A stretch of 34,408 nucleotides of DNA from an uncultured euryarchaeote. GTDB lineage: Archaea; Thermoplasmatota; Poseidoniia; Poseidoniales; Poseidoniaceae. The notes below the pieces were generated by a model. The model was not told the origin of the DNA, searched no databases, and was given only the letters and a program-made list of their open reading frames with translations. The stretch lies in the NCBI GenBank assembly GCA_937894115.1, contig CALBFP010000210.1:1-34408 (forward strand), given 5' to 3'. The translations under genes were made by a program, and so were the position numbers. Positions 32,891 through 33,882 of the stretch are shown here, piece after piece (the first letter of the stretch is position 1; each line of letters begins with the position of its first letter).

Positions 32891-33481
32891 TCACTCTTCG
32901 TTGAAATCTGGATCGTTTATTGCAATGTAAGAAGGCAATTGCAACACACGATCAAATGTTCGTGAAAGAACAATTTCATCAAGACGCTCTCGGGTTCGAG
33001 CAAACGCCGTCAATGGAATTCGAATGTCTTCTTCAATCCCATATTGCTTTTGAGCGTGAAGTCGTGTTCGAACAATGAATCCTTTGTAGGTTCGCTTTAC
33101 TTTGACCATGCCGGTAATTACACCGACTTCTCTTCCTTGATTGTCGAGTACCGCACGATCCAACATTTCATCGGGTGCGTACAGTTTTTCATCAATTCGT
33201 ATTGTGTTGCGCCATCGTCGTTGCAGTTCTCGCATCGATTTTGAAAGCTTTACAGTTCCATCGGTTTGGATGCTGTGTACCAATTCCTTAGGAAGCGGTG
33301 CAAGTTCTGCTGGTTTTCTCATGTACTCATCAGCAACATCAGATTCCACTTGTATGCGCATCGATTGGACGCGCGCCTCGTTTGGGTGATGTCGTTCACC
33401 AACGATCGTTCCTACTTTTTTGTTGTTCACATAGACATCCCGGTGTACCAATTCCTGGATGTTGTATTCTTTGTCTGCCAT
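32891..33481 (-). CDS. PRC-barrel-like protein
   Basis: A protein of 196 residues. Two segments have the PRC-barrel pattern: VYVNNKKVGTIVGERHHPNEARVQSM near the start, and VLDNQGREVGVITGMVKVK at about residues 115-133, followed by long beta strands. Tandem PRC-barrel proteins occur in many euryarchaea, some with roles in cell division or RNA metabolism. No catalytic motif is seen. ATG 33481 is preferred over ATG 33493, because the latter directly abuts the Shine-Dalgarno GAGGAG with no spacer. The leader holds a hairpin around that site. The gene is divergent from the aminotransferase across an AT-rich spacer of 401 nt. Confidence 0.7.
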   Translation of the reverse strand: MADKEYNIQELVHRDVYVNNKKVGTIVGERHHPNEARVQSMRIQVESDVADEYMRKPAELAPLPKELVHSIQTDGTVKLSKSMRELQRRWRNTIRIDEKLYAPDEMLDRAVLDNQGREVGVITGMVKVKRTYKGFIVRTRLHAQKQYGIEEDIRIPLTAFARTRERLDEIVLSRTFDRVLQLPSYIAINDPDFNEE

Positions 33482-33493
33482 ATTTTTTCCCAT

Positions 33494-33536: not shown

Positions 33537-33545
33537 CATATATAC
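33537..33545 (-). promoter_or_regulatory. TATA box of the PRC-barrel gene
   Basis: The minus strand reads GTATATATG, a strong archaeal TATA element. It predicts a transcript start around 33513-33519 and a leader of about 35 nt before ATG 33481. Confidence 0.6.
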
Positions 33546-33882
33546 TCTTCGACCCCAAAAATTAACATTTCAATTGAATTTTTTTTATTTTTGAGTTTAA
33601 TTTGTATTGGGGATTGTAAAATAAATCAAAAAACAGATGTCGTATAATTTCAATTTGTACTGTAATTTTGATTTGTTGAAAATCGGTTTTCAATTGCAAT
33701 CGTGACTGATCACGGTAGGGAAGCCGAAAACGATTTCTTCTGCGAATAAAATGCAATTTTTCCTAATTTTCAATTGCAGATTGCAAAAAAACGTCGAGGA
33801 GAGATCCTCTGTGCAATCGTTGATTCTTCTCTTCTCTTGGCTCTAGGGCTATGTTCAAGGAGTCCTTTGACAGGGAGTATAC
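33546..33882. repeat. AT-rich spacer with phased TTTCAATT boxes
   Basis: The noncoding region between the divergent PRC-barrel and aminotransferase genes is far more AT-rich than the rest of the window. TTTCAATTG occurs at 33568-33576, 33688-33696 and 33768-33776, and TTTCAATTT at 33648-33656; successive distances are 80, 40 and 80 nt. The third and fourth boxes extend to the identical 12-mer TTTTCAATTGCA. The first is the core of a 10-bp palindrome, TTCAATTGAA. Two small inverted repeats also occur: CGTGA-CTGA-TCACG (33701-33714) and GAGGA-GAGA-TCCTC (33796-33809). GCAATCGT recurs at 33696 and 33813. Possible roles are an operator array, an upstream activating element or a replication-origin-like element. 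No gene is seen in it. Confidence 0.6.

What the first reader, a model, noticed from the sequence alone, without database searches (positions are those of the whole stretch)
33568..33776. Four TTTCAATT boxes spaced exactly 80, 40 and 80 nt apart in an AT-rich spacer
The boxes start at 33568, 33648, 33688 and 33768. Three are TTTCAATTG and one is TTTCAATTT, all in the same orientation with a palindromic CAATTG core. Boxes three and four share 12 identical bases. AT-richness makes single matches cheap, but four in register on a 40-nt grid is not expected by chance. Same-face binding of an oligomeric protein is one reading. Possible roles are an operator array for the divergent PRC-barrel and aminotransferase genes, or a replication-origin-type element (AT-rich DNA with repeated boxes). 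The boxes do not look like the known haloarchaeal or Sulfolobus ORB sequences.
Basis: partly seen in the sequence, partly recalled or inferred. Interest (0 to 1): 0.65.

Follow-up and report, generated by a model that had tools for sequence, protein, structure and literature searches.

The report
Xer half-sites in division-gene promoter
The repeated boxes are part of a DNA control region, kept throughout an order of marine archaea (Poseidoniales), in front of a gene resembling a cell-division gene; besides the boxes it carries copies of half of the chromosome's own dimer-resolution (dif) site, hinting at a link between finishing a chromosome and dividing that nobody appears to have described.

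Summary
The four TTTCAATT boxes are real (33568, 33648, 33688, 33768) and beyond chance: 0 of 20,000 dinucleotide shuffles of the spacer hold four. Relatives change the picture. Box 2 (33648) is not a box: it is the tail of a second, better conserved element, GTCGTATAA (33639-33647), so the 80/40/80 grid is not conserved. What is conserved, across both Poseidoniales families, is an array of CAATTG palindromes plus GnCnnATAA elements, always upstream of one PRC-barrel gene, at nearly fixed distance from its TATA box, although the gene on the other side changes.

The second element matches one arm of each genome's own Xer/dif site (window genome: GTCGCATAA-CTACCA-TTATACGAC) and tends to change with it between genera (permutation p about 0.003; small sample). 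In the one single-contig relative, dif lies near the skew terminus and a canonical inverted pair of origin recognition boxes lies opposite, so a replication-origin role for the array is not supported. The PRC-barrel protein has CdpB1/CdpB2, archaeal division proteins, as nearest solved structures.

Best reading: a promoter-coupled nucleoprotein array bound by a CAATTG-binding dimer and, at half-dif sites, by XerA, controlling a division-type gene. XerA binding and transcriptional effect are inferred, not shown.

The parts
32891..33493 (-). PRC-barrel gene, 200 aa (ATG at 33493, or 33481 = MADKEY), CdpB1/CdpB2-like fold
   Evidence: the ORF listing; Pfam PRC weak, below cut-off; AlphaFold model from 54 sequences, pLDDT 83.6, best PDB match 8qzo CdpB1/CdpB2, E 3e-7; found in 88/99 genomes of family f2 and most of f1, absent from the f3 genomes listed
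33538..33545 (-). TATA box (ATATATAC on +) of the PRC-barrel gene promoter
   Evidence: conserved in congeners (mean column conservation 0.91); distance to the first CAATTG box 29-37 nt in 60 of 66 loci where a TATA motif was found automatically
33568..33579 (.). CAATTG palindrome box A (TTTCAATTGAAT; consensus TTYCAATTGRAA)
   Evidence: order-wide
33601..33612 (.). decayed CAATTG box B (core GTATTG, 33 nt after box A; CAATTG in congeners and other genera)
   Evidence: alignment; box B at +32/33 in other f1 genera
   Evidence: conservation 0.99 in 16 congeners against 0.66 for the rest of the spacer; identity with dif arms; covariation across genera
   Evidence: alignment
33688..33699 (.). CAATTG palindrome box C (TTTCAATTGCAA)
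   Evidence: conservation 0.93
33768..33779 (.). CAATTG palindrome box D (TTTCAATTGCAG), distal
   Evidence: conservation 0.88
   Evidence: present beside the array in 59/140 loci

Best explanation
The spacer is the upstream control region of a CdpB-like (division-type) PRC-barrel gene. It holds two kinds of protein-binding site: several CAATTG palindromes (TTYCAATTGRAA), probably bound by a dimer of a still unidentified DNA-binding protein, and one to three single arms of the chromosome's own dif site (GTCGTATAA here), probably bound by monomers of the Xer recombinase XerA. Single arms cannot support strand exchange, so XerA would act here as an architectural or regulatory protein. Together with the CAATTG protein it would form a nucleoprotein complex next to the TATA box that sets transcription of the division-type gene, in principle coupling it to the state of chromosome dimer resolution. 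Shown: sites, conservation, promoter spacing, arm identity with dif, a single Xer-type gene in seven of eight genomes searched, fold of the gene product. Inferred: XerA binding, identity of the CAATTG protein, effect on transcription, role in division.
For: Array conserved order-wide upstream of the same gene: of 115 non-redundant spacers, 104 carry at least one half-dif element and 78 at least two (0.08 per shuffled spacer), with on average 2.9 CAATTG (0.12 shuffled). Footprint in the window genus: half-dif 0.99, boxes 0.88-0.93, rest 0.66 conservation. CAATTG-N5-half-dif composite: 58 hits in 146 genomes, 54 of them at this locus, reversed-pattern control 1; in G033 no other box-element pair within 60 nt in the genome. 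Half-dif elements match the arms of a dif palindrome: f1 mostly GTCGYATAA, genus g6 GGCGCATAA at both, f2 GRCKGATAA; permutation p 0.0026 with one genome per genus, 0.004 within families. G033 dif lies at 1,269 kb against a skew terminus of 1,217-1,228 kb. One PF00589 gene in 7 of 8 genomes searched; the G033 one matches T. acidophilum XerA 5hxy (E 4e-38) and P. abyssi XerA 4a8e. Archaeal XerA can bind each dif arm (PMC8371274). Box A to TATA distance nearly fixed. Product fold closest to CdpB1/CdpB2, whose depletion causes division defects in Haloferax (PMC12186497).
Against: No binding or expression data. The half-dif motif was defined on these data before it was counted. Two of 13 genera tested (g5, g21) have no clean GnCnnATAA in the array, and g4's arm (GGCCGATAA) differs from its dif (GGCGCATAA). 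Covariation rests on 10 genera that share ancestry. The window's genus keeps only one half-site and lacks the 14-nt CAATTG/half-dif composite. The CdpB match is by fold: per-domain superposition is good, but the two-domain superposition is poor (rmsd 11-15 A) and sequence identity about 15%. xerA is not linked to the array (44-142 kb away where both lie on one contig).
Confidence: 0.55

Rival explanations
1. Ordinary operator or upstream activating region of the PRC-barrel gene: one dedicated transcription factor binds the CAATTG palindromes and a second factor, unrelated to Xer, binds GnCnnATAA; the likeness to dif arms is coincidence.
For: Fixed spacing to the TATA box, locus-specific motif, array keeps to the gene while the other neighbour changes. 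An AT-rich 9-mer with four fixed ATAA letters is easy to match.
Against: Arms and array elements tend to change together between genera, including the rare GGCGCATAA of genus g6 at both places. In G033, four of the six intergenic GTCGYATAA are at dif or in the array. In f2 genus g15 the array holds a complete inverted arm pair with a 7-8 nt spacer, as a Xer core would.
Confidence: 0.22
2. A non-transcriptional Xer site: a cer/psi-like accessory or chromosome-segregation platform in which Xer and a CAATTG-binding accessory protein build a DNA superstructure, with the PRC-barrel gene adjacent because it works with it.
For: Accessory-sequence-plus-Xer-arm layout resembles plasmid cer/psi sites (established knowledge; PMC5357621 reviews Xer sites, found but not read in full). 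Complete inverted arm pairs with 7-8 nt spacers in six g15 loci. One array per genome. Conserved over a whole order beside one order-specific gene.
Against: Most arrays have only single arms in direct orientation, with no partner at 6-8 nt. Central regions differ from dif. The tight TATA spacing points to transcription.
Confidence: 0.15
3. Replication origin (Orc1/Cdc6-bound boxes in an AT-rich unwinding element).
For: AT-rich spacer with repeated dyads. Raw keto/amino disparity of G033 peaks at 1,981 kb, 8 kb from the array. TTCCAATTGGAA has the same half-sites as the ORB core TTCCAGTGGAA of Methanomassiliicoccales (PMC4153887), with one more base pair.
Against: Canonical ORBs in inverted pairs 146-166 nt apart exist elsewhere in many of these genomes (G033 203,745/203,911; G002, G026, G031, G138, G155, G161), in G033 opposite the skew terminus and dif. 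Strand-corrected skew puts the optimum at 30-100 kb, not 1,973 kb (residual sum of squares worse by 38). The array lacks the ORB G-string. The second element is a dif arm. Skew on two further contigs shows no clear break at the array.
Confidence: 0.05
4. Chance array in AT-rich DNA.
For: The 40-nt grid itself is not conserved.
Against: Shuffles, phylogenetic footprint, order-wide conservation.
Confidence: 0.01

Closest known systems
Archaeal Xer/dif (XerA-dif, Pyrococcus abyssi, Thermoplasma acidophilum; Cortez et al. 2010, PMC2958812)
   Same: Arm sequence GTCGYATAA / GRCKGATAA is that of the genome's own dif; a single XerA-type recombinase gene in the genomes searched
   Different: dif is one inverted pair with a 6-nt centre near the terminus; here single arms, mostly in direct orientation, lie in a promoter far from the terminus and beside CAATTG palindromes that dif lacks (22 of 24 dif loci have no CAATTG within 300 nt)
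Plasmid Xer sites with accessory sequences (cer of ColE1, psi of pSC101; ArgR/PepA/ArcA)
   Same: Xer-arm sequences beside repeated sites for an accessory DNA-binding protein; six f2 loci have a complete inverted pair with 7-8 nt centre
   Different: Chromosomal, promoter-linked, usually half-sites only; accessory protein unknown
Archaeal ORB replication origins (Sulfolobus, haloarchaea, Methanomassiliicoccales)
   Same: Dyad half-sites TTCCA/TGGAA, AT-rich DNA
   Different: No G-string, different dyad centre; true ORB pairs found elsewhere in the same genomes
Archaeal promoter-proximal operators / upstream activating sequences of a single transcription factor
   Same: Palindromes at fixed distance upstream of BRE/TATA
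   Different: Two element types, three to six boxes over about 300 nt, one locus per genome
CdpB1/CdpB2 PRC-barrel division proteins (A. fulgidus, PDB 8qzo; Haloferax)
   Same: Tandem PRC-barrel fold, best structural match (E 3e-7)
   Different: About 15% identity; order-specific family below Pfam PRC cut-off; one copy in G033

Membership tests
dif / Xer recombination site | Two inverted arms with a 6-8 nt centre | tested here: not met
   In the window a single arm only; complete pairs only in six f2 genus-g15 loci
dif / Xer recombination site | Arm sequence equals that of the dif arms of the same genome | tested here: met
   GTCGTATAA in array; dif of own genome GTCGCATAACTACCATTATACGAC
dif / Xer recombination site | Location near the replication terminus | tested here: not met
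   G033 array 1,973 kb, dif 1,269 kb, skew terminus 1,217-1,228 kb
Xer-bound (XerA) element | XerA binds the element | not testable with these tools
   Needs EMSA or footprinting
Archaeal ORB origin | ORB core plus G-string (TTCCANTGGAAA...GGGGT) | tested here: not met
   Boxes are TTTCAATTGaa without G-string; ORBs lie elsewhere
Archaeal ORB origin | Skew inflection at the site | tested here: inconclusive
   Raw disparity peak 8 kb away, strand-corrected optimum roughly 120-190 kb away in G033; no clear break on G044 and G073 contigs
Archaeal ORB origin | Read-depth maximum at the site | not testable with these tools
   No reads available
Promoter operator / upstream activating array of the PRC-barrel gene | Fixed position relative to TATA | tested here: met
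   29-37 nt in 60/66 loci
Promoter operator / upstream activating array of the PRC-barrel gene | Changes transcription of the gene | not testable with these tools
   Needs a reporter or transcript mapping
CdpB division protein | Tandem PRC-barrel fold | tested here: met
   Foldseek 8qzo E 3e-7 with the 54-sequence model
CdpB division protein | Works with the SepF/FtsZ ring | not testable with these tools
   Experiment needed; an ORF with an FtsZ motif exists in G033 at 965,098-966,111

The most novel reading that the evidence does not exclude
XerA, the chromosome-dimer resolvase, moonlights as a DNA-bound regulator at half-dif sites in the promoter of a CdpB-like division gene across Poseidoniales, tying chromosome resolution to cell division in archaea that lack FtsK.
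Probability: 0.4. Interest if true: 0.85.

Novelty: new variant of a known kind. Interest (0 to 1): 0.68.

Why it matters
In bacteria FtsK ties Xer recombination at dif to division; archaea have XerA and dif but no FtsK homologue (PMC2958812), and how they tie the two is open. A conserved promoter that carries half-dif arms in front of a division-type gene is a concrete, testable candidate for such a link in an abundant uncultured marine order. The work also yields candidate dif sites and a candidate canonical ORB origin for Poseidoniales; two literature searches found no paper holding either together with the order's name.

Tried and rejected
Four equal boxes on a 40-nt grid: rejected, box 2 is the tail of the half-dif element and the grid is not conserved. 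Replication origin: first looked good (raw disparity peak 8 kb from the array in G033), then weakened by strand-corrected four-fold-site skew, by inconclusive skew on G044 and G073 contigs and by canonical inverted ORB pairs elsewhere. Genome-wide regulon of one transcription factor: rejected, TTYCAATTGRAA is rare (4-8 places per genome), the three non-array places in G033 are in ORFs, and the composite is locus-specific. Shared operator with the aminotransferase: weakened, that neighbour is replaced in many genera while the array stays. CAATTG boxes as part of dif: rejected, not found near dif in 22 of 24 loci. Exact-match count of TTTCAATTGCA in the genome (12, control 0) was not used: mostly dispersed, possibly coding. 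No solved structure matches the PRC-barrel protein by sequence.

Full report
Observation. TTTCAATT occurs at 33568, 33648, 33688 and 33768 on the + strand and nowhere else within 10 kb. Shuffling the 389-nt spacer with dinucleotides kept gave four copies in 0 of 20,000 trials.

Relatives. The whole-genome search shows that the window is contig C210 of a 2.33-Mb assembly; named relatives in GTDB are Candidatus Poseidoniales (Poseidoniaceae). The PRC-barrel gene left of the spacer was found in 55 of 60 relatives and in 88 of 99 genomes of the second family (f2), but in none of the f3 genomes listed (same class, other order). Upstream of it lies, in both families, an AT-rich spacer with CAATTG palindromes and a second element. 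In 16 congeneric spacers the second element GTCGTATAAT is conserved at 0.99, the boxes at 0.88-0.93 and the rest at 0.66. In other f1 genera box A is followed after 14 nt by the second element, box B comes at +32/33, a second copy of the element 56-59 nt after the first, and often a distal box pair 20 nt apart; in f2 the composite reads TTCAATTGAAAAAGGCTGATAATC, with inverted copies in some genera.

Locus specificity. CAATTGNNNNNGNCNNATAAT gave 58 hits in 146 genomes; 54 lie directly upstream of the PRC-barrel gene (one more, G177:C32, is probably the same array cut by a contig end), and the reversed control gave one. In G033, a relative assembled as a single 2.064-Mb contig, the array is the only cluster of four or more boxes (up to two mismatches) in 400 nt and the only place where box and element lie within 60 nt. 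This is not a regulon. The gene on the other side is the aminotransferase in 59 of 140 loci and something else in many others, so the array belongs to the PRC-barrel gene. The first CAATTG box lies 29-37 nt from its TATA box in 60 of 66 loci where a TATA motif was found automatically. That fixed spacing is the main reason to call it a promoter element.

What the second element is. While listing its copies in G033 I met GTCGTATAA-CATACA-TTATGCGAC at 1,269,044, a Xer dif-type palindrome. The pattern GNCNNATAANNNNNNTTATNNGNC found such a site in most f1 genomes and in several f2 genomes, usually once, including the window's own (C120:479-502), and the arm tends to be the arm used in that genome's array: GTCGYATAA in most of f1, GGCGCATAA at both places in genus g6, GRCKGATAA in f2. 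With one genome per genus (10 genera) the match is better than under permutation (p 0.0026; 0.004 within families), but the sample is small and related, and two genera have no clean element. The G033 dif is 40-50 kb from the skew terminus (1,217-1,228 kb). Seven of eight genomes have one PF00589 gene; G033's matches XerA of T. acidophilum and P. abyssi. Published work states that archaeal XerA can bind each dif arm (PMC8371274). CAATTG boxes are not a feature of dif (2 of 24 loci within 300 nt). In six loci of f2 genus g15 the array holds a complete inverted arm pair with a 7-8 nt centre.

The gene. AlphaFold with 54 order members gives pLDDT 83.6; the best solved structures are CdpB1/CdpB2 of A. 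fulgidus (8qzo, E 3e-7), whose relatives stabilise the Haloferax divisome (PMC12186497). Sequence search finds no solved relative and Pfam PRC is below its cut-off, so 'CdpB-like' is a fold statement.

Origin reading. It deserved a real test. Raw keto/amino disparity in G033 peaks 8 kb from the array, but removing coding-strand bias moves the optimum to 30-100 kb, with 1,970 kb clearly worse, and contigs of G044 and G073 show no clear break. Canonical ORBs in inverted pairs 146-166 nt apart occur elsewhere in G002, G026, G031, G033, G138, G155 and G161. In G033 the pair is at 203.7-203.9 kb, whose antipode (1,236 kb) falls between the skew terminus and dif. A further ORB lies about 5.3 kb from orc1/cdc6.1. 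The array is therefore unlikely to be an origin, although its dyad shares half-sites with the ORB core.

Mechanism and limits. I commit to a promoter-coupled nucleoprotein array: a dimeric CAATTG-binding protein plus XerA monomers on half-dif arms upstream of a division-type gene. Site identity, conservation, spacing and fold are shown; binding, partner identity and transcriptional or cell-cycle effect are inferred. The strongest rival is a conventional operator whose second motif resembles dif by coincidence.

Noticed in passing
G033 203745-203930 (locus L334; also G002:C26, G026:C20, G031:C13, G138:C41, G155:C7, G161:C18): Inverted pair of canonical ORBs 146-166 nt apart, a candidate chromosomal origin of Poseidoniales; in G033 next to a gene that looks like a metallo-beta-lactamase-type nuclease.
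   Followed up: partly
G033 1269044-1269067; own genome G000:C120:479-502 (L358): dif-type palindrome, usually one per genome; in G033 close to the skew terminus.
   Followed up: yes
G033 1824161; G000:C290:12744; L327; L328: Canonical ORB conserved beside the same small gene in several genera, about 5.3 kb from orc1/cdc6.1 in G033 and the own genome.
   Followed up: partly
window 33845-33861: GGCTATGTTCAAGGAGT-type stretch just before the aminotransferase start is invariant or nearly so in congeners; in many it opens a very short ORF (MFKGVL*), perhaps a leader peptide.
   Followed up: no
G033 105-310 kb: Local skew opposite in sign to the genome-wide trend, centred on the ORB pair.
   Followed up: no
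G033 1973622-1974201: PRC-barrel gene reads as two overlapping frames, probably an assembly indel.
   Followed up: no
L146 and L223: Contigs labelled Rhodobiaceae and Deltaproteobacteria carry the Poseidoniales locus; mislabelled or mixed bins.
   Followed up: no
G033 293991 and 1291882: Two further intergenic GTCGYATAA half-sites outside dif and the array.
   Followed up: no
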